Origin: a virus
Virus record (IMG/VR): IMGVR_UViG_3300045973_000956
Coordinates: 1 to 43,484 of that record
Strand: one strand, 5' to 3'
Length of the DNA stretch: 43,484 bases
The translations under genes were made by a program, and so were the position numbers. The notes below the pieces were generated by a model, which saw only the letters and a list, made by a program, of their open reading frames with translations, was not told where the DNA came from and searched no databases. Of this stretch, positions 1,798 through 43,484 are shown one piece after another; within the stretch, counting starts at the first letter, position 1; the number at the start of each line of letters is the position of its first letter.

Positions 1798-2268
1798 TTA
1801 AACATATTTCCAAATATATCATCCTGTTGTTTTTCTTTTTCATTTACACACTTTACATATATTAGGACGATATATCTTTAATTCTCTTTGTATATCATTT
1901 ATACAATTCCAAGTTTTTATAAAAATTCAATCTATTTCATATTGATTAATTTTTTTCATTAGAGATTTTCTATTACATATTCTTCATTTTTGCATCATAT
2001 CATTGGTATTATCTTGGGCTGTTCATATAAATAAATGTTCTGGATTTATACAAGATGGATTATCGCATTTATGTAATACATGTAAATTTAAAATACTTCA
2101 TTTAAAATAAGTATAAGAAAATCTATGAGCTCAATAAATTTTATAATTATAAGTCAATCTTCAATATCAATCTTTATCTTTATATTTAATCCAATTCCAA
2201 CATCAAGTTTTAACATCTATATTTATTCTATCTAAAAAGAACTGTTTATTTATAATATGTTTGTCCAT
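1798..2268 (-). CDS. HNH homing endonuclease with NUMOD1-like tail
   Basis: 156 aa. After a short N-terminal segment (WNWIKYKDKDGYGR) comes an HNH_3-type core with HVLHKCDNPSCINPEHL around residues 67-83, followed by GTAQDNTNDM. The C-terminal third (INQYEIDGIFIKTWNCINDI) matches the NUMOD1 DNA-recognition helix that accompanies phage homing endonucleases. Its stop abuts the terminase stop with no bases between. It is transcribed from its own promoter and leader (element D, 2269-2393). Its likely role is selfish spread next to terL; a packaging-assisting role, as for some HNH proteins beside terminases, is possible but not shown. TGA=Gly codons in the gene indicate adaptation to this genetic code. 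Confidence 0.88.
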
Positions 2269-14911: not shown

Positions 14912-15718
14912 ATGGATATAGAAATGGTTAATTGAGCTATAGATAGTCAAGATGAAAGAAACTATAATTATTGAGAAATGGTTTGAACTATATGAGATTT
15001 ACCAATATCTAAAATAATTGATGATTGAGTTTATCAAAATCAATGATTATATAAAGAGACAGCTTATTTTTGTGTAGCATATTCACATAGTCATTGAAGC
15101 AATATAGAGAATTCTATAGAATGAAGTTGAGATAGAATAACTTGATTAGCTCTTGGTAGAGAAATGGTTAAAAAATGATTATTAGACACTAAAGTATGAG
15201 CTTATATTATTGATTGAGCTAAAACATTAAAAGATTTAAAGTTTATATCTTGATTTGCTCAAATATCAACTATAGATGAAATAAAGCACTCAATATTTAA
15301 TAATAGACCAGTAACTACTGGTAGTAATACTATTAACTGGAAAGAAACAGTCAATAATAATAATATAGCTGTTAGATGAAATAGTTATTGACACGCATTC
15401 TTAATAATAGGTTATAATGATGAAACTAAATTATTAATTTGTAAAAATAGTTATTGAACTGAGAAATTTGATAAAGGTAGATTCTATATTAAATATGAAG
15501 ATTTTGATTTATTATATAATTCTAAGTTTTCATTAATAGACCAACAAGACCAAAGTATTTTAAATTATAAAAAAAAGATTATGGAAAATTTGACTTTAGA
15601 TAGTGCAAAGAAAGCAATGGAACTGGGAATTTGGAATTGAGAGAATCCAAATTCCCCTATAAGCCGTGAAGAAACAAGTGCGATGCTATATCGTTTATAC
15701 GAAAAACTACAAAAATAA
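14912..15718 (+). CDS. Papain-like (C1) lysin with C-terminal SLH-like domain
   Basis: 268 aa. The catalytic triad of papain-family cysteine peptidases is visible: Cys54 in YFCVAYSHSHG, His161 in YGHAFLIIGYND and Asn179 in CKNSYGTEKF followed by GRFYIKYEDF. Several of these Gly are TGA. A C-terminal segment from about residue 224 (LTLDSAKKAMELGIWNG, then PISREETSAMLYRLYEKLQK) matches an S-layer-homology repeat, which anchors proteins to cell-wall polymers. Position after the holin genes makes it the likely endolysin. No signal peptide is seen, so holin-dependent release is expected. A papain-type lysin rather than a muramidase or amidase is unusual. The last 19 nt before and into the stop are duplicated at 16435-16454. 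Confidence 0.8.
15698..15717. repeat. 20-bp direct repeat, left copy (end of lysin gene)
   Basis: The 20 bases spanning the last lysin codons and the first bases of its stop are repeated exactly at 16435-16454. They bracket the HNH cassette; see the right copy. Confidence 0.85.
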
Positions 15719-15860: not shown

Positions 15861-16427
15861 ATGGAACAAGAAATATGGAAAGATGTAGTTTGATATGAAT
15901 GATTATATCAAGTTAGTAATTTAGGTAATGTAAAAAGTTTAGAAAGGAAATGAAGATTATGACATAATTGAAAAATATTAAAACCTAGAGATAAAGATTG
16001 ATATTTTAATGTAAATTTATGTCAAAATTATAAAGCTAAAAATTATTATATCCATAGATTAGTATGATTTGCTTTTATCCCTAATATAGAAAATAAGCCA
16101 TTTATAAATCATAAAAATTGAATAAAAAGAGATAATAGATTAGAAAATCTAGAATGGTGTACAAAAAGTGAGAATATGAAACATAAATGTAGGGTATTAT
16201 GATATAAGACAGAATTTCAAACTAATAATCCTAGTAAATGAAAACTTTGAATATTAAATCCTTATAGCAAAAAAGTTAATCAATATACAAAAGAATGAGT
16301 ATTTATAAAAAGCTGGGACTGTATATTAGATATAAAAAGAATTTTATGAATAAATAATTCTGATATAGTATCTGTGTGTAAATGAAGAATAAAGTCTTGT
16401 TGATGATATAAATGGAAGTATACATAA
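15861..16427 (+). CDS. NUMOD4-HNH-NUMOD1 homing endonuclease
   Basis: 188 aa. NUMOD4 at the N terminus (EIWKDVVGYEGLYQVSNLG), then the HNH core (IHRLVGFAFIPNIENKPF, INHKNGIKRDNRLENLEWCT, residues about 66-105), then a NUMOD1-like tail (KVNQYTKEGVFIKSWD; ending in GGYKWKY). Related to the HNH gene at 42625-43254. The gene, with its own promoter and leader A, sits between two exact 20-bp repeats of the lysin 3' end, as expected for a cassette that landed behind the lysin gene without breaking it. Confidence 0.92.
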
Positions 16428-16454: not shown

Positions 16455-16628
16455 GGCGATTTAAGAAGAGTTTATTAATTTTACTTAAAATCTATCGTGA
16501 GAATAAAAATAATATCTTAAAAAATGTTGTAAATATTAATATTTTTACTATAATTGTATAGTTCGCTAAAACACATCTAAATTTATTGCCAAAAAATCTA
16601 AAGAGGGGAGAAAATAAAAAAGACTAAT
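16455..16628. other. Convergent intergenic stretch without a gene
   Basis: No ORF of note on either strand with TAA/TAG stops. AT-rich with a GAGGGG tract near 16600. Only the terminator at its right end is supported. Confidence 0.5.
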
Positions 16629-16652
16629 TTAATTGTTAGTCTTTTTTATTCT
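16613..16652. terminator. Bidirectional terminator between lysis and early blocks
   Basis: AAAAAAGACTAA/TTAGTCTTTTTT stem with an AT loop, A and T tracts on both sides. It closes the plus-strand lysis/HNH unit and the minus-strand early block; the minus stop of the next gene lies in the stem. Confidence 0.8.
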
Positions 16653-16919
16653 TCTTTCTTTTTTTATTTTAGGAAATTCTCTTTTAATTTTAGCTCTTAG
16701 AATCTTAATTTCTTCTTCTGATATAAAATAATCAATTTTATAAAAATTTTGAAGTTTATTTTTACGGATAAAATCTTCTAAAATTTCAATTCTCTCTATT
16801 AAAGAAAATTTTTTAGGTAAATTTTTAGCATATTCCTTTTGCTTTTTTAAAATCTTTTCTCTATGTTTTTGGTATTGAATTTTTCTATATTCAGAATTAT
16901 AAGGAATTTTTTTATTCAT
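16629..16919 (-). CDS. Basic helical protein
   Basis: 96 aa, very Lys/Arg rich and without a single Gly. The basic N-terminal helix (YRKIQYQKHREKILKKQKEY) and basic C terminus (REFPKIKKERRIKKTNN) suggest nucleic-acid binding. Not assigned to a family. Last gene of the minus-strand early block. Confidence 0.65.
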   Translation of the reverse strand: MNKKIPYNSEYRKIQYQKHREKILKKQKEYAKNLPKKFSLIERIEILEDFIRKNKLQNFYKIDYFISEEEIKILRAKIKREFPKIKKERRIKKTNN

Positions 16920-28211: not shown

Positions 28212-29252
28212 ATGACTTTAAGAAGTATTTATAATGATGTGCTTATAGATTGAGCTAAATTAGATAATCTACCAACTAATACAAACACAAGTATAGCTTG
28301 AAAGGTTAGTCTTACTTGAGATGAAACAATAGCTTGAATAAAGACTTTCTCTAGTGTACCAGTATTACCAGCTTCAGACCCTACAACTTCAAATCAATCA
28401 ACAAGAAAATCTTATGTTGATACTTTTAAGCCTGACTTTTTCAAATACCAAATAATTCCTGCAGTTGTAAGTAATAATTTAACAGTTACTTTAAAAAATT
28501 ATAACTGAGATATTCCAACAGCAATAGCCCCAATTAAATATCAAGATTGAAGTTGAACTATCAGAACTATATCAAGTGCTTTGAGTTGAAATATTAATGC
28601 TTGAACTAATTGGTTTAATGCTTGAAGTTCTGAATTAGCTACTAAGGAAATAGATTTTTTTAGTTATTTACTTTATGATAGTGTTTCTTCAACTACTGCT
28701 TTAATTATATCAAGAATTCCATATGCAACAATAAATTCTGATTTTTCATCTACTAGTACTAATGAGAAATATTCCGCTTGAATATGAACTTATAATAGGA
28801 CTGCATGAGATAGATGTGTTAATATTTGAAAGTTTAGTGCGATATTAAGTGCCTGAGCTTGATACACTTGGACTATATGAGCTTGAACTACAATTAATCA
28901 ATATATTAATGAAACAAATTGGTTAAGTTGGTCACCAGTATTAACTGGATGATCAGTATTATCTTGATTTACAACAGCATATTATAAAGTAGTATGAAAT
29001 ACTGTGCAATGTTTTGTTTGTGCAGATAATAAAACACTAACTTGAGCTTGAATTATTAATATTTCTCAGCCTTGGGGGATAGCAAGTTGATTTGGGACAA
29101 CTCCTACACAATATGTAGCAAACGACTGAACAAATTGGGTTGTCCCACATTCTAATTCTACTCAATTTTTTAAGACTGCTTGAGCTTGAACTTGGGCTTG
29201 ATGAGAAACTTGAGTTTATATTAGATTTTCTAATAATTATAAAATAGCTTAA
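28212..29252 (+). CDS. Tail fibre-like protein
   Basis: 346 aa. The N-terminal part carries the tail-fibre pattern SIAGKVSLTGDETIAGIKTF followed by SVPVLPASDPTTSNQSTRKS, typical of the repeat that anchors phage fibres. The C-terminal part is Gly/Trp/Ser rich beta (TNWLSWSPVLTGGSVLSGFT) and ends in a typical fibre tip (GGETGVYIRFSNNYKIA). Many of its Gly are TGA. Confidence 0.7.
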
Positions 29253-29271
29253 TATTTAAATTACAATCCTT

Positions 29272-29553
29272 ATGGCACTAATAATAACACAAACAGATAA
29301 TAAGTGAAATATCTATAATAATGCTTATTTAAAACTAAATCCAGATACAAGAATAATAAATAATATAATATCTTTTACTTGATTGATTTATAAAGATAAA
29401 GAGGCAAGAGATAATGAACTTGAAACTATTTGAAATTTACAGTTTTCAATAGAAATTAAAGATAATATTCCTACTTGAGATAAAGAGAGACTAGCTCTTA
29501 TGTATGAGAAAGTAAAAGAGCAAGAAGAATATAAAAATGCAATTAATAATTAA
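29272..29553 (+). CDS. Small virion-associated protein
   Basis: 93 aa, not recognised (IITQTDNKGNIYNNAYLKLN; GDKERLALMYEKVKEQEEYK). Lies between fibre and adaptor genes with short gaps; may be a fibre-associated chaperone or connector. Confidence 0.55.
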
Positions 29554-29563
29554 TATATAAAAT

Positions 29564-30727
29564 ATGTTAATAGAAAATGAAATACCATCTTGAACTATAA
29601 ACTGAGTAAATAAAACCTTTACAACTGCTAGTTTAATCTTAGCAATTAGTAGGGTTGTTATTGGTTGAGCTGAATACTTTGGGTGATATACTTTCTCTTG
29701 AAATACTATTATTTTAGTTGATGCCCCGCTTCCAACTTCACCAACAATCTTTATAGATTACTGGGATACTCCAACAACTAATGTAACAGGAGCAAGTAAG
29801 ACTTTGCAAGATGTTTATGATATTGCTTACTGAATTATAGCACAATGACAAGATAGTACAGCATACCCTTTAACTCTTATGAAGTCTTTTATAAATAAAG
29901 CTCAAAGAGATATTTGTTACTGAAATGTTCATAATTTATCTACAAATGAAAGATTAGAAAAACAATCATTAACATTTTTAGAATCTAATCAGTTTTATGA
30001 AACTCATCAATATAGAACTTTATCAACTACAGCTACAGTATGAGCTACAACTTTAACTTGTACTAATACTTTTTTATCTAGTGGTTATTTATGGATTAAT
30101 TGAAATATAATACAATACACAAGTAATGATTGAACTACTATTTGATGAATACAATCATTATGAACTTATAGTATTAAGTTTCCTTTTACTTCATGAACTC
30201 AAGTATTTCAATTAGATGAATTACCAGCTGATTTATGACAATTAACAAAAGTATTTTTAAATATTAATAATACAAGAGGTAGACAAACTTTAATATGAAT
30301 AGATGATAGAGATTTAACTAATCCTATTTCTAGTTCATATATATATAATTTCTTTAATGATTGATATAATTGAAATTGACAAGGTAGAGAGTGGTATTAT
30401 TCTATAATTAGATGATGATTTATATTATTTATAGTTCCTCAAGTAGATTGAAATTCTATAGGATTAGAATATCAAATAAAGCCTACAGAATTAACTAATC
30501 CTACAGACCTATTAACTATTAACGATGAGTATTCATTAACTACAACCCCTTATCTTGCAGTTGCTGAGATGATGGCACAGAGAGGCGAACTTGATGAAGC
30601 ATTAAAATTAAATAACTTTGGTTTTAATAATATAAAAACAATGTATTCTTTTTATAACACTCAAAGGAACGAATTAATTTATAATCAGAGAGTAAGAACA
30701 GTTAGTGACACATTTTATAATTTTTAA
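29564..30727 (+). CDS. Head-tail adaptor-like protein
   Basis: 387 aa. The N-terminal 70 residues (SGTINGVNKTFTTASLILAI) resemble a small beta domain often fused to tail proteins. The C-terminal helices (PYLAVAEMMAQRGELDEALK, then YNTQRNELIYNQRVRT) resemble the helical end of podovirus adaptors (T7 gp11 or P22 gp4 type). The nozzle gene follows 10 nt later. The adaptor call rests on this order and end pattern. Confidence 0.55.
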
Positions 30728-30737
30728 ACATTAGAGA

Positions 30738-32303
30738 ATGGCTCAAAAAAACAGTAAATTTATTCCGCTTTCCGACAAACAAGGTTCTATTTTTACCTGA
30801 TGAATTACAAATAACAGTCCTTCTTGGACTATATCTTATGCAAAAACTCCTTATGCTAGAAACTTTAGAGTAAATGGTGGTTGAATAAGTATTAGACCTT
30901 GATTTTATCAATTCGGTAATGATTTATGAGCTTCTGATTATCCAAAAGGTATAGGGGCTTATTTTCGTGGTAATTCAAGTGATAGAATCATAGTTAGATA
31001 TAATGTAGATTGAACACATAAATTAGTAAGTATAACACCTGATACTTGAGTACAAATAAGTGTTGATACAACTTGATTAATTACTTCTGATAATAGAATG
31101 AATTTTATTGGTGCTAATGATAGTCTTTATTGTATGAATGGTATTGATTTAATTTGAAAGTTAAATTGAACTACTTATACAAATCCTACAGCATCAATTA
31201 AACCTAAATTTTGAGTTTGGTTTAATAATGCTATGTGGGTTGCTTGAGACCCATCAACTCCTAATAGAATGTTTAAATCAGCAGAAAATAACCCTGAGAG
31301 TTATAGTTGAACTTGAAATGATATATTTGATAGTTGAACTCCTATAACTTGATTATGTGCTAGTTTACAGACTCTATATGTATTTAGTGAAAATTATATA
31401 GATATGATAAATTCAAACTCTATTAAACAAATATGAAGTAGTCTTGTTTATACTTCTGTCCCTTTAGAAAGTATGGAAGGGGCTTTGTCTCACAATACTA
31501 TAGCTAATATGTGAAAAGATGTATATTTTCTTAGTAGAAGTTGAAAAATTAAGAAACTTACACCAAATAACTTAACTTATGATGTAGTAGAGGTATCACA
31601 TAGAGCTAATAGATGAATAAATCCAACTATGGACTCATTAGATAGCGACCAATCATCTTGATTTTGTTATGTAATACCTGAAAAACAATTAATAAAATGG
31701 TTTTTGAAAACTAAAGGAAGTGTATATAATGATATTGTTATTATCTATAATACTGAATATGATGAGTTTATGATAGATGACCATAATGTTTGTTACTGAT
31801 GAGTTAATTATCATACAAATAATTATACAATATCTCAAATAGAATCTAAAGTTTATAGAGATGAAGAATGAACAACTGATGATGATAGCCCTATACAGTT
31901 TAGATATGATACTAAAGTATTAAACTTCTGAGAGCCTACAATATTAAAATGTTTATGGCAAACTAGGACTTACTTAAGTATAAATATAGCTTGAGAAGTT
32001 TACCAAAACATTTATGCTGATTGAAGTTTAGTTGATAGTAAATTGATTAATAGTTCTACAATTCCACAAGTAGTTGATTGAATATGAACCGAAGCAATTT
32101 GAACCTTTGCAATGTGAACTGAATGATATACCCCTGACACACAATATAACACTGTAATTGTAAGAGATAAATGATATTTGAGAGTCAAGGCTAAATCTTT
32201 CTATGTTTCTTATGTAAGTTATAAAATAGGGACACAATGTTTATTGCAATCACTAGAGCCCCAAGTCGAGATGTTAAACTTCCTTACTACGAGCCATTTT
32301 TAA
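30738..32303 (+). CDS. Tail nozzle protein (P22 gp10/T7 gp12-like)
   Basis: 521 aa. The pattern NFRVNGGGISIRPGFYQFG, WFNNAMWVAGDPSTPNRMFK, GLCASLQTLYVFSENYIDMI and NMGKDVYFLSRSGKIKKLT is that of the beta-propeller nozzle/stabilisation proteins that plug the short tail. Length fits. Together with the adaptor gene it is the main evidence for podovirus-like morphology. Confidence 0.7.
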
Positions 32304-32305
32304 AT

Positions 32306-32349
32306 TAAGGACAATATAAGGACAATATAAGGACAATATAAGGACAATT
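32306..32349. repeat. 11-bp tandem repeat between nozzle and adhesin genes
   Basis: Four copies of TAAGGACAATA (last one ends TT) directly after the nozzle stop. AAGGA resembles a Shine-Dalgarno core, unusual in this genome, but no start codon follows any copy. It could be an iteron-like binding site. Confidence 0.9.
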
Positions 32350-32376
32350 ACCTAGAATTACTTAGATATTAAAATA

Positions 32377-32411
32377 AAATCTTCCCCGATTTACTTTTTA
32401 TTTTAATTACT
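32377..32411 (+). promoter_or_regulatory. Late motif AAATCTTCCCC upstream of adhesin gene
   Basis: Third exact copy, 24 nt before the ATG at 32412. The spacing is nearly the same as at 3078 and 28175. Confidence 0.5.
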
Positions 32412-33953
32412 ATGTCTACAACAAGTTATGCTTCTTGAGTTACATTATATCTTGCAACTAAATTAAATCCTGCAGGAACCCTAACAGTAACAACTAATCC
32501 TTGACCTTCTAATTGAAGATTATATCTAGTAAATGATAATCAAGTAGAATGGATTGATTATACTTCTGTTACTGCTTCATGAAGTAATTATATTTTATGA
32601 TGACTTACAAGAGATTTAAGCCCAACAACTATACCAGCAACAAGTTTAAGTACTTGAAAGACTTGGTTAGCTACTCAAAAATGTCTACTTGTTGCAATGC
32701 ACGACCAATTATGGGACAGACAACAAGGTTGACCTTTTGCTAGCTTAACAACAGCACAATTAACAGCAAGAACAAATAAATTAGTATGAGAAACTTTCTT
32801 TAATACTATTTTATGAAGTCTTGTATATTGGAATGGTTCAAGTTATCAATCTTTTTGAACTTGAACTTTTGTTAATGCTTCTACAACTAATACTTGATGA
32901 GTAGAATTGGCGACACAATGAGAGGTTGATGCTTGAACTCCAACTTGAAGTGTTTGACCTTTGATTGTTTGACCTGATACTTACATTGCAAATAGAAATG
33001 CTTATATCACTTCTTTAATTCCAAGTCAAGCAGAAGCAGAAGCTTGAGCTAGTAATACAAAACTTTCTACACCCTTAAGAGTTAAGAATTATGTAGATTA
33101 TGTTATATTAACAAGCTTTTGAGATTGAAGCGACTGAGATGTTACAATAACAACTACAGTAACTCTTACTAGAGATATGTACTATAATAATCTTACAATA
33201 ACTTCACCTTGAGTATTAAATCCTGATTGATATAGAGTTTATGTTAAAAATACTTTATCTTGAAACTGAACTATAAGAAGAAATTGAAATACTTGATGAG
33301 CTTGACAATTAGCTTCTGGTTGAACTTGAGCAAGTGCATTAAATGCTTGAAGTTTAAATGCAGAAGTGTGAGGAGCAAATGGTTGATATATTTGAGTTTG
33401 AGCGACTTGAGGTTCCTCTAATCCAAGTTATACGGCTATAAATTGAGCAAATTGATGAGCTTGATGACCTTATTGAGCTTGATGAGGTTGAACTTCAACA
33501 AGATGAGCACTTTATAATACTTATAATAAGTTTAGTAATCTTCTTATGAGTTTAAATCCTGCATCATTTACAATAAATACAACTCAATATAAAACTGCTT
33601 CTTGAAGTGGTTGAGGATGAGGTTGATATGTAAGTTGATATGGTTGATGAGGTTGAGGTTGAAATTGAGGTTTAATATGGATAGCATCAAGAATAATAAA
33701 TTTTACTTGAACTATGGAAAGCTTAGGTTGAACTTGATGAGCTGGGTTCCAATGAGCTTATAGTTGATGAAGTGCTTGAGGTGGTGGATGATGACAAGGT
33801 TGAGTTATTTATTTGATTGCATCTACTTTTACTTCGATTTGAACTCAAAATTTAACTGGTTGAGCTTGATGAATAGCTTGAAATACTTGAGCTCCTGCTT
33901 GAAGTGCTTGATCTACTTGAAATAGTTGAGTTACTATACAAATTACAGTTTAA
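32412..33953 (+). CDS. Glycine-rich adhesin (polyglycine-type tip)
   Basis: 513 aa. The N-terminal about 210 residues are an ordinary beta-rich fibre domain. From about residue 280 on, Gly-rich stretches occur (GGANGGYIGVGATGGSS, GYGGGGGGNGG, GGAGFQGAYSGGSAGGGGGQ), with TGA and GGN alternating. Such stretches form polyglycine-II sandwiches in adhesins such as phage S16 gp38. It probably recognises the host surface. It gives the clearest evidence that TGA is Gly: reading it as Trp would give an impossible Trp-rich sequence. Confidence 0.75.
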
Positions 33954-33963
33954 TTATAAAAAT

Positions 33964-36933
33964 ATGGCTTCTACAATACCAGTTACTACACCAAATACAA
34001 ATAATCCAGAGGATATTACTAAAAAGTTTCCTTGAGTTAATGTAAATGAAAAAACTATGTCAAATACAAGTACTAATCCTTTATGAAGTAATGCTTGAAT
34101 GAGTGACAAGAATTTTTTGACTATTCCAAATTCAACTACAGCTAATACTTGATTTGTAAATAATTGATTACCAAGTGTAAATGAGAAAGTTCAATCTTGA
34201 ATAAATAATTTACCTAGTGCCACAACTCCAATAACTTGAAATGCTATAAGTAATAATTCAGTTACAAATAAACCAATTACAAGTCCTAATATTACTCCTA
34301 CAATTAATACTTGAACAACTACAACAGATACTATACTACCTTTAAATGAAAAAACAGACCCTTTATTAAATAAATCCGCTTCAACTATTCCAACACAAAC
34401 TACTTGATGACAATGAATAGACCAAATAGTAGACCAAATGTTTCCTAAATGAAGTTATACAGATGAAGAAAGACAAGCTATGAGAGAGACTCTATCTAGT
34501 AAGAATACAGCTGAAATAACATCAATAATGGCAGATAATGCTAAATGAAACTATCAACAATCACAAGAATTATTAAAAGCCTATAGAACTACTAGAGATT
34601 TTTGACTTACACAACAAAGAAATCAAACATTGAGTGACCAAAGATTAGCTGATTTAAATCAAAGTTATGATAATGCTATACAAAGTCAGAAGCAAAAAAT
34701 GGAGGCTGATGCAAATAATATGGCAGTTGTTATGTGATGAGCTTGAAGACTACAGAGTAGAAATTTAATATCTGGAGTAAATCAGATGTTAGATAATAAT
34801 AAACAAATATATAGTCAATTAGTAAGTAATAAAGACAGGGATATTGCAAGATTATGAGAGGATTTAAAATATGCTCAAACAGTTGCTAGTAATGAATATA
34901 ACGATATGATATCTCAAGAAATGCAAGATATGTTAAAATGAATTCAAGCATTAGATAAAACTGGTTCTTTAAATACAGCTCAAGGATTAGTACAAGCAAG
35001 AAGTTTTATTGATGCTACTATATCAAATTCTATGTCTCATCAATCAGACTATTATAATAAATTAAATTATATCTCTCAAAGATTTGACCAATATCACAAA
35101 GAAGCATTAGCAAATCAGACAGTAGATGAAAATGTTACAAAAATGATGTGAGATTGATTTTTATATAATCCACAATGAGGGCAAATTAAAGATGAAAATT
35201 GAAAAGCTTTACAAATTAAAGGTTCTACATCAGGAACATTAATACAAAAAGAACCTATTACTCTTAATGATTGAAGTAAATGACTTATTTTCCAAAATAA
35301 TGATTGAAGCATAAGAGTAGAGAAAATAGTATGAACAGAAGCAAGTCAAGTAAATCCTGAGGTAATAAATAAATATGCAAATGCATTTGCTAGTTGATTA
35401 TTACAAATTGATGATTTAGTTAAGTTATGACTTCCTCAAGATACAATTAATCAAATAGTTTGACAAGTTAATGGTAAGATTGCTGACCCTATAACTCCAT
35501 ACCAACAAGCACAATTAGACCAAGATGCACAAAAACTTGAATTAGAAAAGACAAAATGGAATAGTATGAGTGCAAGTGAAAAAGCTAAATATGAGTTAGA
35601 TGTAAAAGACCATAATGAAAAAGTAAGACAATTTAATGAAACAAATTCATCTTCTACTTCTACAGATAGTAATACTTGAATTGCAAAAGCATTAGATGAA
35701 GATATTAAAAGGATTTGATGAGATACAGCTTTAACTTGATGAGCTATTGAAAGTATATGAAATGAATACTGAGTTAATCCAGCTTTCTTATGAGCAGTAT
35801 TAAGAAATGATAGTAGCTATTGAGCTAAATTATATAGTAAAAATAATTATTGAAATGTTTGAAATAATGATAGTTTAGTTGCTAGTGGTAAAAAATGAGT
35901 TGAATTTGCAACACCTGAGGAATGAATAAAGGCAACAGCAAATAATTTAAAGAACAGAATAGATACTTATAAATGAATATATTGAAAATCTCCAACAGTT
36001 CAAGAAGTATTAAGTTGAGTAGGTAAAGATTGAAAGAAATTCTTTTGAGTGTATATGACAGACAAATCAGCTTATGATAGAGTTGATAGAATCACAAAAG
36101 ATTTAATGAAATGATGAGAATGACAAACAAGTTGATGAAATATATCAGAAGACCCAAAAACTAAGGCTATTATAATATGAAATTTAGCATATTGAAAAAC
36201 TATAACAAAAGGACAATCTGAACAGATAAATGATTTAATAAAGAAATACCCAAATGCTTCATCTAAAGAATTAAGTTTAGCTGTTAAATGATTTGATATT
36301 AAAGATAATAAAAATACAGATTTAGCTTTAAATTATATTAATTTTTGAAATCAATTAACTAAAAAACCTGAATGATTTGAACAAACAGTTTCTAATTATA
36401 TAAATAGTTGAAATATAAACTGATTAAATCAATATGTAACTCACGAAATGGACAAAGAAGTGCAAAAGTCAGAACCCAATCCTATAAGTTCTTGAGACCA
36501 AGCAAATCAAACAAAGAGTATAGCAAGGATTATTAATTTAATAGATAAAAATAAATCAAAAATAGGTAAGGTACAATGAAATTTATCTAACTTTGCAAAT
36601 ATGTTTAGTTCTGATAAAGATTATACAGAATTAAAATCATTACTACAATGAGTTCAAGCAACACAAAGAAAATATTTTGCTTGAAGTGCAGTTACTCCAA
36701 CAGAATTACAAGCATTAGAAAATTTTATATGAGGTACTGAAAAAATGGATGCTGATAATTTAAAAACTCAAATTACAAGTTTAAATAATCAGTTTACACA
36801 ATGATATTTAAGTCAAAGAGGTAATTTCTGAGTTAATCCTATAAGATATAATCTTTCTACAAAGACCCCAACTATTACAAATACTTGATGAAATAAAAAT
36901 GCTGATAATTATTTAAAATCATTATGATATTAA
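33964..36933 (+). CDS. Internal virion protein with lysozyme-like domain
   Basis: 989 aa. The N-terminal 170 residues are Asn/Thr/Pro rich and low complexity, followed by a long helical region (residues about 175-430). A lysozyme/transglycosylase-like domain spans about 585-710: YGVNPAFLGAVLRNDSSYGA, then NNYGNVGNND and EEGIKATANNLKNRI. The usual catalytic Glu position holds Asp616 (NDSSYG), a variation I recall in related virion muramidases. A second helical region follows. It is likely ejected to breach the cell wall. Confidence 0.65.
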
Positions 36934-36962
36934 GACTAAAATTCATTTTAGTCTTTTTTTTG
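36930..36962 (+). terminator. Terminator after 989-aa gene
   Basis: AAGACTAAAA/TTTTAGTCTT stem with short loop and eight T. The stop codon lies at its left edge. Confidence 0.85.
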
Positions 36963-37015
36963 CAATTAAAGAAATAAAATCTATAATTATATTAATATTA
37001 TTAATTTATAAAAAT

Positions 37016-40000
37016 ATGGTTTATCAAATCCCTTGATACAATACTAAAAAATGATTTTCTTCTAGTGATGCAACATTAAACTATATACCTAAGAAAGAAG
37101 AAAAGAAACCTTTTCTTAATCTTTCACAACCTATTAGTCAATCTTGAGTAACAAATATAAAAGAGATTAAGAAACCACCAGTTATTCAAAAACCAGTTGA
37201 AAAACCAACAGAAGATTTAAATAATCAATTTAATTGGTGAATACAAACAGCTAATGCAAATGAGAATCAAAATACACCAGAAAAATATTTAACTAAAGAT
37301 AAAGTAAAAGAAATAATAGATAAAAGACCAGAATGAGTACAACCTATAGACTTATTTAAATCTTTAGAGCAAAAAGGTTATATAATGGAGTGATATAATG
37401 ATAAAGAACAACCAACAACTACAGAGAATAAGCCAGTAGAAAATGCAAGTATTCAAGATATGCATCCTACTGAATGAGTATTAGAACAAACTGCAAAAGC
37501 ATTACCAAGAGCTATAAAAGATACTGGAATGTGAATATTAGAATGAGTAAAAAAATGAGTAATTTGATTATGAAATATAGAATGAAGAGTAAAAAATATA
37601 ACTCAACCATATATTACTAGTTGATTAAATGCTATAACTTGATTAAATACAAAACCCTCAACTATTAAACATATTTGAGAAGATAAAGGTTTATTATGAG
37701 ATATATCACAAACTACAGCTTGAACATCATCAGCTTTATTTAATACAATTAAAGCTCCTATGAGTGTTTGATTAAATACAGCAAGTCAATTACCTTGAAC
37801 TCAATATGTAATGCAATGATTATGAAAAGTAATAGAATGAGGTTCAAATATTAGTGCAGATATAACTTGAATAGATAGATGAACTATGCAAGACATTACA
37901 ACAACTTGAATGAATACTTTATGATTAAAAATGAAGTCTTGAGATACTTTGCAAACTATTAAAAATACACAATGAAAATGAATTATTTGAGGAGCTAAAT
38001 CAGTTTTATGAGATACCTTACAATCAACTAAGGATATAGCTAAAATGCCTTTAAATGTTACAAAATGAGTAGTTAAATGATGAGCTAGTATAATTTGAAA
38101 ATGATTAAATAAAGTATGAGTAAAATCTCCATTATCTCAAGAGTATGTACCTGCAAAAACTGAATGATGACAAGCTTTTGAAGTAGATAAAACACCTTGA
38201 TTAAAATCAAATATAACTGATACATTATTTAAAAAATCAAACGAGATATTAGCTCAGCAATCTATAATGCCAAAGTTAAATAAATCTAAAACATCAAAAG
38301 ATAAGATAGAAGCTAGCACAACAGCCTTAAACTGAATAAAACAATTATATGAAGATAAAGCTAAATGAAATGTTAAAAGCGATATTTCTACTATGTGATG
38401 ATGAGTTGAATGATTAAGTGAGTGATTAGATTATCATTGAAAGATTATCTGAAATTTAACAAAAAATGATGCAAAAGTAAATACAACAGATTTAATTAAT
38501 AATTTAGAAAAATCAGTTGAAAATCCTAAGTTTTGAAGGACAAATGCATCTATTTTAAATATAGTAAAAGACACAGTTTGAGATTTTAAAGATTTATGAA
38601 AAGATACATCTATTAAAAATATTCAAGAATGATTATCTTGAGTTAAGAATAGAATATTTAAAAATCAAGAAAATATTAGTGATTTATATAAAACCGATGC
38701 TTGAAGAGAATTAAATATATTTTTAAAATGATTAGAAGATAATTTTAATAAAACCATTGAACAAACTTCTTGAAATAGTAAACAATTATTAGAAGCTAAA
38801 TCTAATTATGCTAAATATAAAAAGATCGAAAAAGATTTTATTGATAGTTATATGGTTGAATTAAGGAATCAATGAAAATGAGTAACTTGAACGGCTTGAA
38901 AAATTGCTTGATTATATGAAGTATTAAGTAATCCTAGTGTTTCTTGAATATTAAAAGCAGTTGCATTAAAACAAGCTTGAGAAACTATGCAATATTATAA
39001 ATCAAGAGGATGAAATTATGAAACATTAATTAGAAATCTTGATAGAGAAGCAGTTAATAGAAATTTAAAACCTAATATTATTAAAAATGATACAAGTAAT
39101 AGCAATTCTAGTAGCTCTATGGATAATAAACAGTCTATAAAACAACCCCAAACCTTTCTTCAAAAAACAAAAGATAAGATGTGAGATATAGTTGATGAAA
39201 TTTCGAGTAAGGTTGGTTGAAAGTCTAATTTCCTACCAACTAATAAATATCAGAATATAGCAAATAAAGAATGAAGTATAATAAAACATAAACAACCCTA
39301 TAAAATGACTCCTGACGATGTTAAAAAACTAAGTGAGTATGTTGACACCAAAATGAAAGAAAATCAAGTCTGAGATATAAGAAAAGTAGTAGAAAGTACT
39401 AATAAAGAAATTACTAATAGATTTTTAGATACTCAAAAGAGAATGAAATTAAAAACTATTTGAGAACATATTAGTGATGTAGCTAAGAAATATATTTTAC
39501 CTTCTACATTTAAAGATGATTTATATAATTTAAGTGAGAAGATAGCTAAGTTCACTTGAACTAAGAGTAATATTATTGAAAATACTAAATCCCCTATTCT
39601 AAAACCAAAGATTATAGAGAGTTTGGGAAAGAGTAGAGAGTTAGAACTTTTGATTAATCAAGCTAAGAAGTATAAAACTTTTGATGAGTTTAAAAAATCA
39701 CAATGAGAAGAATTATATCATTGAACTACACAGAGCTTCAAAGAATTTAAACCCAGTACATCAAAATGATGATTTAATGAAGACCAAATCCCTTGAATTT
39801 ATGTTACTAACAATAAGAATATTGCTAAAATATTTACAGAAAGAGTTAATCAACAAGCTTGACATATAATTAATACTTATAATTATATGAAAAACCCTCT
39901 AGTTATAAAAAGTAATACAGAATTATGAAATATGTTATGATTAGATTTAAATAATCCAAAAAATCTAGTTTTAGCAAAAAATATATTAGAAAGTAAATGA

Positions 40001-40144
40001 TATGATTGAATTATTAAAAAAAATAATATAAGTTTTAAGTGAGATAAATGAGATGAAATAATTATTTTTAATCCTAAGAGTATTAAAACAGAAACTCAAC
40101 TTAAACAAATCTACGAACAATCAAAAAAGACTAATTTAAATTAG
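37016..40144 (+). CDS. Giant virion protein with C-terminal ADP-ribosyltransferase-like domain
   Basis: 1042 aa. The N-terminal part is Pro/Lys/Thr rich; residues 160-430 are Gly/hydrophobic and helical, possibly membrane-active (IERGTMQ-type repeats are absent). The middle is long helix. The last about 145 residues look like an ART of the kind found in phage polyvalent proteins: ELYHGTTQSFKEFKPS (H902), QIPGIYVTNNKNIAKIFTER (Y929), NPKNLVLAKNILESKGYDGI and GDEIIIFNPKSIK (E1014). The H-Y-E positions fit an active enzyme. As the last late gene after the 989-aa lysozyme-like protein, it is likely packaged and injected to modify a host target. Confidence 0.65.
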
Positions 40145-40155
40145 TCTTTTTATTA
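40122..40155. terminator. Terminator ending late block 2
   Basis: AAAAAAGACTAATTT/AAATTAGTCTTTTT perfect stem spanning the stop codon, with A and T tracts on both sides, so it can serve both strands. Only 98 nt of gene-free sequence follow. Confidence 0.85.
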
Positions 40156-40982: not shown

Positions 40983-41252
40983 TTATATTAAATATATAAT
41001 TTCTTTTAATAATTCTTCTTCTTTTTTGTCTCATAAATAATAATCTCATTTAATAGAATTTAATAAATCTTTTAATTTATCTAAAATAATAAGATTATTT
41101 TCTAAGATTTGTTTTCTATTATATAAGTTATGATTAATTAAAGTATTATTATCATAAATAGATAAATCACCTAACTTTTCATTTATACCATTTATTTCAC
41201 TCTCAATTACATTTTGTCTATTAAAAATATCATATTCAAAAGAAGTTTCCAT
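40983..41252 (-). CDS. Coiled-coil accessory protein behind element E
   Basis: 89 aa, helical (NRQNVIESEINGINEKLGDL; RKQILENNLIILDKLKDLLN). I start at 41252 (METSFEYD), because the ATG sits at the same place relative to leader E as the HNH ATG does to leader F; a longer reading would run into the leader. First gene of the 40243-41252 operon. Confidence 0.65.
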
Positions 41253-41357
41253 AATTTTAAAAATCAAAAAAAGTAATAATCTCCGACAATTATTACTTTT
41301 AAATAAAGTATATAAATACTTACTGTCAGAGTTGTAAATATTCATAGAGTAATTATA
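41248..41357. repeat. 110-bp perfect direct repeat, copy 1
   Basis: Identical to 43250-43359. It spans the start codon region and leader, up to the -10 of element E. The identical leaders serve different genes. Confidence 0.9.
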
Positions 41358-42624: not shown

Positions 42625-43254
42625 TTAAACATATCTCCAAATAAAACCTCAAGCAGTTTTTTGTATTCATTTACAGCAAGCTGAAATATTTGTTTTAAAA
42701 ATTCATAAATCTCTCATTACATCACTTAAACTATCCCAAGTTTTAATAAGATTACCTAGTAAATTATATTGATTAACTTTCTTACTTTTACGATTATCTT
42801 TTCAGAATTTTCATTTATCTGGATGATTGACTTTAAAATTATTTTTATTTGATAGCTTATTTCATAATATTCTATAGCTATGTAATATATTTTCACTAGC
42901 AGTACAAAATTCTAAATTTTCTAAATTATTATTATATTTATCTCAGTCAATATGATTAACTTGTTCTTTATTTTTAGGATTATCTAAAAAAGTTAAACAC
43001 ACCAATCTATGTATATAAAAAATTTTAGCTATTCATCTAATATATAAATTAATACGACAGTATCCGTTTATATATTTTGAATATTTCAATATCTTATCTT
43101 TTTTAGTTTTAGAATTTCATAAACTCTTAACATTCCCTTTATTACTTACTTGATATAATCCTTCATATCAAGGTATATCTTTCCATATTTCAGGTTTATT
43201 ATTTAGTCTAATCTGTCTCTGTAGAAGTTTATATTTTTCTCTTATATTATCCAT
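42625..43254 (-). CDS. NUMOD4-HNH-NUMOD1 homing endonuclease
   Basis: 209 aa. NUMOD4 at about residues 28-50 (PEIWKDIPGYEGLYQVSNKG), HNH core (YIHRLVCLTFLDNPKNKEQ, VNHIDGDKYNNNLENLEFCT), then NUMOD1-like (KVNQYNLLGNLIKTWDSLSD; ending GGFIWRYV). Closely similar in plan to the plus-strand HNH at 15861-16427, with 20 extra N-terminal residues. It faces away from terL across the circle junction and is transcribed from leader F. Confidence 0.92.
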
Positions 43255-43359
43255 AATTTTAAAAATCAAAAAAAGTAATAATCTCCGACAATTATTACTT
43301 TTAAATAAAGTATATAAATACTTACTGTCAGAGTTGTAAATATTCATAGAGTAATTATA
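43250..43359. repeat. 110-bp perfect direct repeat, copy 2
   Basis: Identical to 41248-41357. Together the copies bracket about 2 kb with the leader B operon and HNH gene, and would allow loss of that segment by homologous recombination. Confidence 0.9.
43255..43359 (-). promoter_or_regulatory. Leader element F: P1/terminator pseudoknot before HNH gene
   Basis: Same bases as element E in P1 (43283-43291 and 43325-43333) and terminator stem. The -10 ATTATA/TATAAT is kept (43354-43359), but beyond the repeat the sequence differs, and a TTGAAA-like -35 lies about 16 nt away. The junction with the terminal repeat is inside this promoter. Confidence 0.78.
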
Positions 43360-43484
43360 TATAATAATTTGTATTTTTCAAGTTTATTTTTATAATTATC
43401 TTGATTTGAGTTCGGGACAGTTTTACTAAAATATGTGCTGATTATGAAAGACTAAAATGTGATAAAGATGATAAAGAATAATAC
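43358..43484. repeat. Terminal direct repeat, copy 2
   Basis: Identical to 1-127. Joining here makes a circle in which HNH leader F and terL face apart with about 240 nt between the two start codons. Confidence 0.95.

What the first reader, a model, noticed from the sequence alone, without database searches (positions are those of the whole stretch)
37016..40144. Virion protein with ADP-ribosyltransferase-like C terminus
The last late gene encodes 1042 aa whose final domain carries YHGT (H902), GIYVT (Y929) and GDEIIIFNP (E1014), the H-Y-E layout of ART enzymes in phage polyvalent proteins. Placed next to the lysozyme-like virion protein, it may be ejected with DNA and modify a host protein or RNA at once. 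Injected effectors for CPR hosts are hardly described.
Basis: partly seen in the sequence, partly recalled or inferred. Interest (0 to 1): 0.75.

Follow-up and report, generated by a model that had tools for sequence, protein, structure and literature searches.

The report
Phage ejection-type protein with ADP-ribosyltransferase tail
A virus of bacteria that read the stop codon TGA as glycine carries, on what is probably one of its genome-injection proteins, an enzyme domain of a known kind that attaches ADP-ribose to other molecules; it probably modifies the host at the moment of infection, as phage T4 does with its Alt protein.

Summary
Read with TGA as glycine, 37016-40144 is one 1042-aa gene, and residues about 898-1025 form an ADP-ribosyltransferase (ART) domain: Pfam ART-PolyVal at 50.3 bits (cut-off 31.2), and a confident AlphaFold2 model (pLDDT 89) whose best solved matches are all ART folds. 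H902 is kept in 38 of 38 non-redundant homologues, Y929 in 28, E1014 in 22. E1014 falls on the catalytic glutamate of PARPs. Conserved glycines of the ART family fall on TGA codons, which independently shows TGA = Gly.

The interpretation (ejected with the DNA, modifies the host) is plausible but indirect. The gene closes the late tail-gene block of a podovirus-like genome and ends in a terminator hairpin. The top structural match is chain B of the cyanophage A4 pre-ejectosome (PDB 9k3a), a 1717-aa virion protein with a related ART-like domain near its C terminus that lacks the Glu. Injected ARTs in phage polyvalent proteins were proposed in 2017 and 2022. So this is a new member of a known kind, in an unusual host group (genetic code 25). 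No close relative was found, and the first 890 residues match nothing. Target and activity remain untested.

The parts
37016..40144 (+). 1042-aa late gene carrying the ART domain (genetic code 25)
   Evidence: one frame, 84 TGA codons read as Gly; ATG preceded by TTTATAAAAAT, as at other late genes of this genome
39683..40090 (+). ART domain, residues about 890-1025; Pfam match 900-1025
   Evidence: PF18760 E 5.6e-13 (whole protein) and 9.5e-15 (domain alone); AF2 model pLDDT 89 and pTM 0.82; ART folds in PDB and BFVD
39719..39721 (+). codon of H902 (motif YHGT, strand 1)
   Evidence: His in 38/38 non-redundant homologues
39800..39802 (+). codon of Y929 (motif GIYVT, strand 2)
   Evidence: Tyr 28/38, Phe or Trp in 6 more
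40055..40057 (+). codon of E1014 (motif GDEIIIFNP, late core strand)
   Evidence: Glu 22/38; falls on the Glu of NEYIVYNPNQV of PARP2 in the profile alignment
37016..39682 (+). residues 1-889: low-complexity N terminus, Gly-rich amphipathic-looking stretch (about 150-370), helical-looking middle; no family match
   Evidence: no Pfam, PHROG or NCBIfam match of weight
40124..40151 (+). terminator-like hairpin (12-bp stem, 4-nt loop, U-tract) that overlaps the stop codon of the ART gene
   Evidence: -10.8 kcal/mol, z -4.4; a similar copy lies at 16616-16660 (D7). The consensus terminator scan did not list it; its stem holds few G-C pairs
33964..36933 (+). upstream neighbour: N-terminal coiled-coil-like part, weak glucosaminidase-like part (about 35746-35985)
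   Evidence: PF01832 E 0.0011, 20.0 bits, below cut-off 30.2; start context
29564..30727 (+). head-tail adaptor (SU10-type)
   Evidence: PF24175 E 2.3e-7, above cut-off
30738..32303 (+). virion structural (stabilisation-type) protein
   Evidence: phrog_3287 E 4.6e-7

Best explanation
The gene encodes a late-made virion (ejection-type) protein of a podovirus-like phage that infects a bacterium using genetic code 25 (Absconditabacteria or Gracilibacteria). Its C-terminal 145 residues are an NAD+-dependent mono-ADP-ribosyltransferase of the ART-PolyVal family. Proposed course: the protein is packaged in the head, leaves through the tail ahead of or with the DNA, its helical N-terminal part helps to cross the envelope, and the ART domain reaches the cytoplasm. 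There H902 and Y929 hold NAD+, E1014 activates the acceptor, and ADP-ribose is put on a host macromolecule, most likely a protein such as RNA polymerase or a defence component, before phage genes are expressed. Shown here: the gene, the code, the ART fold, the triad, the late position. Inferred: packaging, ejection, activity, target.
For: Pfam ART-PolyVal over 900-1025. 60 IMG/VR loci plus F116, DC33, cr130_1 and a plasmid carry homologues, and the triad is largely kept. The profile's sequence matches in the PDB are nearly all PARP-family chains, and E1014 meets the PARP catalytic Glu. AF2 model pLDDT 89. Best solved structures: 9k3a_B, SAIP, PARP1, MbcT, diphtheria toxin, tankyrase, NatT, ParT. 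9k3a_B is Anabaena phage A-4L ORF27, a chain of the pre-ejectosome, with YHGT at 1425 and GDTTLVINPDAV at 1585, encoded among the late tail genes. DC33 has a stabilisation-type protein, then an internal protein, then a 3125-aa ART-PolyVal protein. Here the gene closes the late tail block and ends in a terminator. TGA = Gly is fixed by conserved Gly columns. Published inference that such ARTs are injected: PMC5512222, PMC9503650.
Against: No virion proteomics; no sequence kinship outside the ART domain to any known ejection protein, A-4L ORF27 included. Only one domain is recognised, whereas typical polyvalent proteins have several. E1014 is not universal in the family, and the A-4L copy has Thr there, so activity is not a given. 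The lysin-like neighbour is weak.
Confidence: 0.62

Rival explanations
1. The ART domain is real but no longer catalytic; it serves as a structural or nucleotide-binding part of an ejection protein.
For: E1014 is kept in only 22/38 homologues; the ejectosome homologue of A-4L has Thr at that place.
Against: This copy keeps H, Y and E and also the conserved YDG and FxPxxIK motifs, although it is only 19-35% identical to its relatives.
Confidence: 0.17
2. The enzyme is not ejected: it is made late and acts inside the infected cell (for example against a defence or a superinfecting phage), or acts on phage virion proteins during assembly.
For: Late position alone does not show packaging; T4 ModA and ModB are ARTs that act in the cell (PMC9503650). 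Iyer et al. also offer countering of immune processes aimed at the packaging machinery as an alternative.
Against: Fused to about 890 residues of a large protein in the place where podoviruses encode ejection proteins; A-4L, cr130_1 and DC33 parallels.
Confidence: 0.15
3. A prophage polymorphic toxin of the MuF/Bxa type, released to harm competitors.
For: Phage-borne ART toxins with a variable C-terminal domain exist (Bxa, PMC11699363); the domain is C-terminal here.
Against: No MuF domain, no gene for immunity or ADP-ribosylhydrolase behind it (terminator and opposite-strand genes follow), no integrase among the genes tested.
Confidence: 0.04
4. The domain cleaves NAD+ (glycohydrolase or phosphorylase) rather than transferring ADP-ribose to a macromolecule.
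For: MbcT and NatT, which destroy NAD+ (own knowledge), are among the structural matches (Z 8.2 each).
Against: Pfam family and triad layout fit the PARP/diphtheria-like transferases better; NAD+ loss at entry would harm the phage.
Confidence: 0.1

Closest known systems
ART-PolyVal (PF18760), Tox-ART-HYD2-like ARTs of phage polyvalent proteins (Iyer et al. 2017, PMC5512222)
   Same: Family match above the curated cut-off, H and Y motifs, YDG and FxPxxIK motifs, late phage gene, domain inside a large protein
   Different: Third residue is Glu here (the 2017 paper gives Asp for the group; Glu is the commonest residue at this column in my 38 homologues); only one recognised domain; 1042 aa against a median of about 2,770 aa; ART at the very C terminus; TGA-recoded
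Anabaena phage A-4L ORF27, chain B of the cyanophage A4 pre-ejectosome (PDB 9k3a)
   Same: Large late protein of a podovirus with an ART-like domain near the C terminus; best structural match (Z 8.8, 118 residues, 3.3 A)
   Different: No sequence kinship outside the ART motifs; Thr in place of Glu; Pfam does not recognise its ART
T4 Alt
   Same: What it would work like: a virion ART ejected with DNA that modifies host RNA polymerase
   Different: Alt belongs to the R-S-E group (PMC5512222); this one is H-Y-E, so not a member
N4-like virion RNA polymerases with ART (Roseovarius Plymouth podovirus 1)
   Same: Same ART family in a podovirus virion protein (PMC5512222)
   Different: No RNA polymerase domain was recognised in this protein
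Pseudomonas phage F116 p60 and Limnohabitans phage DC33 LBILNBIM_00045
   Same: ART-PolyVal in a large protein among late genes (last before the holin in F116)
   Different: LPD or peptidase-like domains besides the ART, ART internal, standard code

Membership tests
ART-PolyVal (PF18760) | Profile score above gathering cut-off | tested here: met
   50.3 bits against 31.2; all 30 aligned members match the family too
ART-PolyVal (PF18760) | His in strand 1 and Tyr in strand 2 | tested here: met
   H902 and Y929; strands E34-40 and E64-67 of the model (model residue 1 = residue 865)
ART-PolyVal (PF18760) | Acidic residue in strand 5 | tested here: met
   E1014 is model residue 150, inside strand 147-153; the literature gives Asp for the group, my homologues Glu in 22/38
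ART superfamily fold | Structure matches solved ARTs | tested here: met
   VIA Z 7.8-8.8 to PARP1, tankyrase, diphtheria toxin, MbcT, SAIP, ParT; Foldseek PARP1 prob 0.99. Z near 8 is modest, but the top five Foldseek hits are all PARPs and the rest listed have prob 0.16 or less
Phage polyvalent proteins (Iyer et al.) | Two or more disparate effector domains in one polypeptide | tested here: inconclusive
   Only the ART is recognised; residues 1-889 match nothing
Phage polyvalent proteins (Iyer et al.) | Packaged in the virion and injected | not testable with these tools
   Late position only; parallel in PDB 9k3a
T4 Alt / VIP2 clade | R-S-E active site | tested here: not met
   H-Y-E; family match is ART-PolyVal
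MuF-type polymorphic toxin (Bxa) | N-terminal MuF domain and neighbouring immunity gene | tested here: not met
   No MuF match; terminator and opposite-strand genes follow
N4-like virion RNA polymerase | RNA polymerase domain in the same protein | tested here: not met
   No such match in Pfam, PHROGs or NCBIfam

The most novel reading that the evidence does not exclude
An ART ejected into a code-25 CPR bacterium reprogrammes a streamlined host at entry by modifying a target known from no studied phage system, through an ejection protein unrelated in sequence to any known one.
Probability: 0.2. Interest if true: 0.65.

Novelty: new member of a known kind. Interest (0 to 1): 0.42.

Why it matters
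It extends the known theme of virion-borne ARTs to phages of bacteria with TGA = glycine, for which no injected effector turned up in the papers I could search. It also links that theme to a solved structure: the cyanophage A4 pre-ejectosome already holds an ART-like domain that Pfam does not recognise. The ART domain gives independent evidence on the genetic code, since its conserved glycines fall on TGA. It offers a defined, testable enzyme domain from hosts that are hard to grow.

Tried and rejected
Close relatives of the whole protein, of the primase-helicase, of the ART domain and of the lysin-like part in viral contigs: none. Terminase: 10 distant loci only. Whole protein against phage records: nothing at E 1e-3. 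PHROGs and NCBIfam: no match of weight. PDB by single sequence: nothing significant. Idea that D997 (YDG, 36/36) rather than E1014 is the catalytic acid: not settled, since model coordinates were not at hand; the profile alignment with PARP2 favours E1014. Lysin-like neighbour by AF2 without alignment: pLDDT 42, useless. Promoter scan: no more sites than in shuffles.

Full report
Observation. The window is a whole IMG/VR virus record. Its first and last 127 bases are identical, so it is probably a complete genome of 43,357 bp. Under table 11 almost nothing is open (3% of the bases lie in frames of 150 codons or more); with TGA read as sense it is 66%. In code 25 the frame 37016-40144 gives 1042 aa with 84 TGA.

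What the domain is. Pfam finds ART-PolyVal at 900-1025, E 5.6e-13, well above the curated cut-off; DUF3990 is a weaker match below its cut-off. tblastn with residues 880-1042 finds Pseudomonas phage F116, Limnohabitans phage DC33 and crAss-like cr130_1 among phage records (weak E-values, 0.01-0.5) and large LPD23 proteins on plasmids. A profile of the window and these three phages finds 60 IMG/VR loci. In 38 sequences (the window's own included) less than 80% identical to each other, His is kept in 38, Tyr in 28 (Phe or Trp in 6), Glu in 22; Asp of YDG and Phe of FxP in 36 of 36 that reach them. All 30 members of the alignment used for folding match ART-PolyVal. A profile search of PDB sequences returns almost only PARP-family chains (none significant by itself), and the PARP2 alignment places E1014 on the Glu of NEYIVYNPNQV. 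The AlphaFold2 model has pLDDT 89 and pTM 0.82. Foldseek gives PARP1 and tankyrase as the only PDB matches of high probability. VIA-align gives Z 8.8 for 9k3a_B, then SAIP, PARP1, MbcT, diphtheria toxin, tankyrase, NatT and ParT. Predicted viral structures named ART-PolyVal match at E down to 2.5e-7, unnamed phage proteins down to 2e-8. The fold is settled for practical purposes.

Genetic code as a by-product. All 12 glycines of the aligned region are TGA codons. Homologues, nearly all from standard-code phages, have Gly there in 32/32 (897), 34/37 (903), 32/36 (927), 32/35 (995) and 33/35 (998); Trp is seen 6 times in all TGA columns together. So TGA is Gly and not Trp, which points to an Absconditabacteria or Gracilibacteria host; most predicted Absconditabacteria phages and all prophages of both groups in one survey use code 25 (PMC10746230). 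Host by CRISPR was not tested.

Where it sits. The block 28212-40144 runs in one direction: tail-fibre-like gene, SU10-type adaptor, virion structural protein of phrog_3287, a Gly-rich fibre-like gene, a protein with a weak glucosaminidase-like part, then the ART gene. A hairpin with a U-tract overlaps the stop codon of the ART gene, and the genes beyond run the other way. No tail-sheath, tape-measure or tail-tube gene was recognised among those tested, so a podovirus-like particle is likely but inferred.

The strongest parallel. The best structural match, 9k3a_B, is titled 'Cyanophage A4 pre-ejectosome'. I matched its sequence to Anabaena phage A-4L ORF27, 1717 aa, over the whole length. It has LYHGT at 1424-1428, GSGTYFS after it and GDTTLVINPDAV at 1585-1596, the same motifs as here except that Thr replaces Glu. 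It is one of the large late proteins beside the tail-fibre genes of that phage. This suggests that a protein with an ART-like domain near its end sits in the pre-ejection apparatus of a podovirus. The paper on that structure was not found in the held library, so I rest on the PDB title and my own comparison. Its Z is tied with those of the next rows. DC33 shows a similar order: stabilisation-type protein, internal protein, then a 3125-aa protein with LPD22 and ART-PolyVal. L017, the nearest homologue by score (31% over 848-1039, with matching flanks on both sides of the ART), has its ART gene just after terminase, portal and a coiled-coil protein.

What is known. Iyer et al. 2017 (PMC5512222) defined polyvalent proteins, called ARTs their commonest protein-modifying domain, proposed injection, and used T4 Alt as the model. 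The 2022 survey (PMC9503650) found about 44% of phage ARTs in contexts that suggest packaging, and 18% of podoviruses with some NAD+-ADPr component. So neither the domain nor the idea is new. What is particular here: a recoded phage, a short protein (1042 aa against a median of 2,766 aa for 38 complete homologous frames), the ART at the very end, no other recognised domain.

How it most likely works. Shown: late gene, ART fold, intact triad. Inferred: packaging, ejection and ADP-ribosylation of a host protein at entry. I put the ART fold at about 0.97, catalysis at about 0.8, ejection at about 0.7 and a host protein as target at about 0.5; these are judgements, not computed values. Main doubts: no proteomics, no kinship of residues 1-889 to any known ejection protein, Glu not universal in the family.

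Verdict. Observation confirmed; interpretation partly supported; new member of a known kind, of moderate interest because of the host group and the link to a solved pre-ejectosome.

Noticed in passing
1-127 and 43358-43484: Identical 127-nt direct terminal repeat; the record is probably a complete, circularly assembled genome of 43,357 bp.
   Followed up: partly
gene starts, e.g. 8083, 8604, 29564, 33964, 37016 (+); 41622, 41915, 42297 (-): No Shine-Dalgarno-like sequence; many starts carry TATAAAAT or TTATAGAATT directly before ATG, often with TAAC some 10 bases further up. Whether this is a translation signal or a promoter element is open.
   Followed up: partly
41248-41357 and 43250-43359: 110-nt identical duplication: the NUMOD4/HNH gene at 42625-43347 (-) begins with the same 32 residues as the gene at 40983-41345 (-), as if a homing-endonuclease gene had been fused behind a copied gene start.
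   Followed up: no
1798-2268 (-), 15861-16427 (+), 42625-43347 (-): Three HNH/NUMOD homing-endonuclease-like genes in one 43-kb phage.
   Followed up: no
14912-15718 (+): Papain-like (C1/C39) cysteine protease gene in the phage.
   Followed up: no
L076 20116-25269 (-), Anabaena phage A-4L ORF27: ART-like domain near the C terminus (1424-1600) of a pre-ejectosome protein of known structure (PDB 9k3a); Pfam does not detect it and the record calls it 'tail protein'.
   Followed up: partly
L014 (PQ492659.1, Limnohabitans phage DC33): Filed in GenBank under Inoviridae, but gene content and the 39-kb genome look like a podovirus of Caudoviricetes.
   Followed up: no
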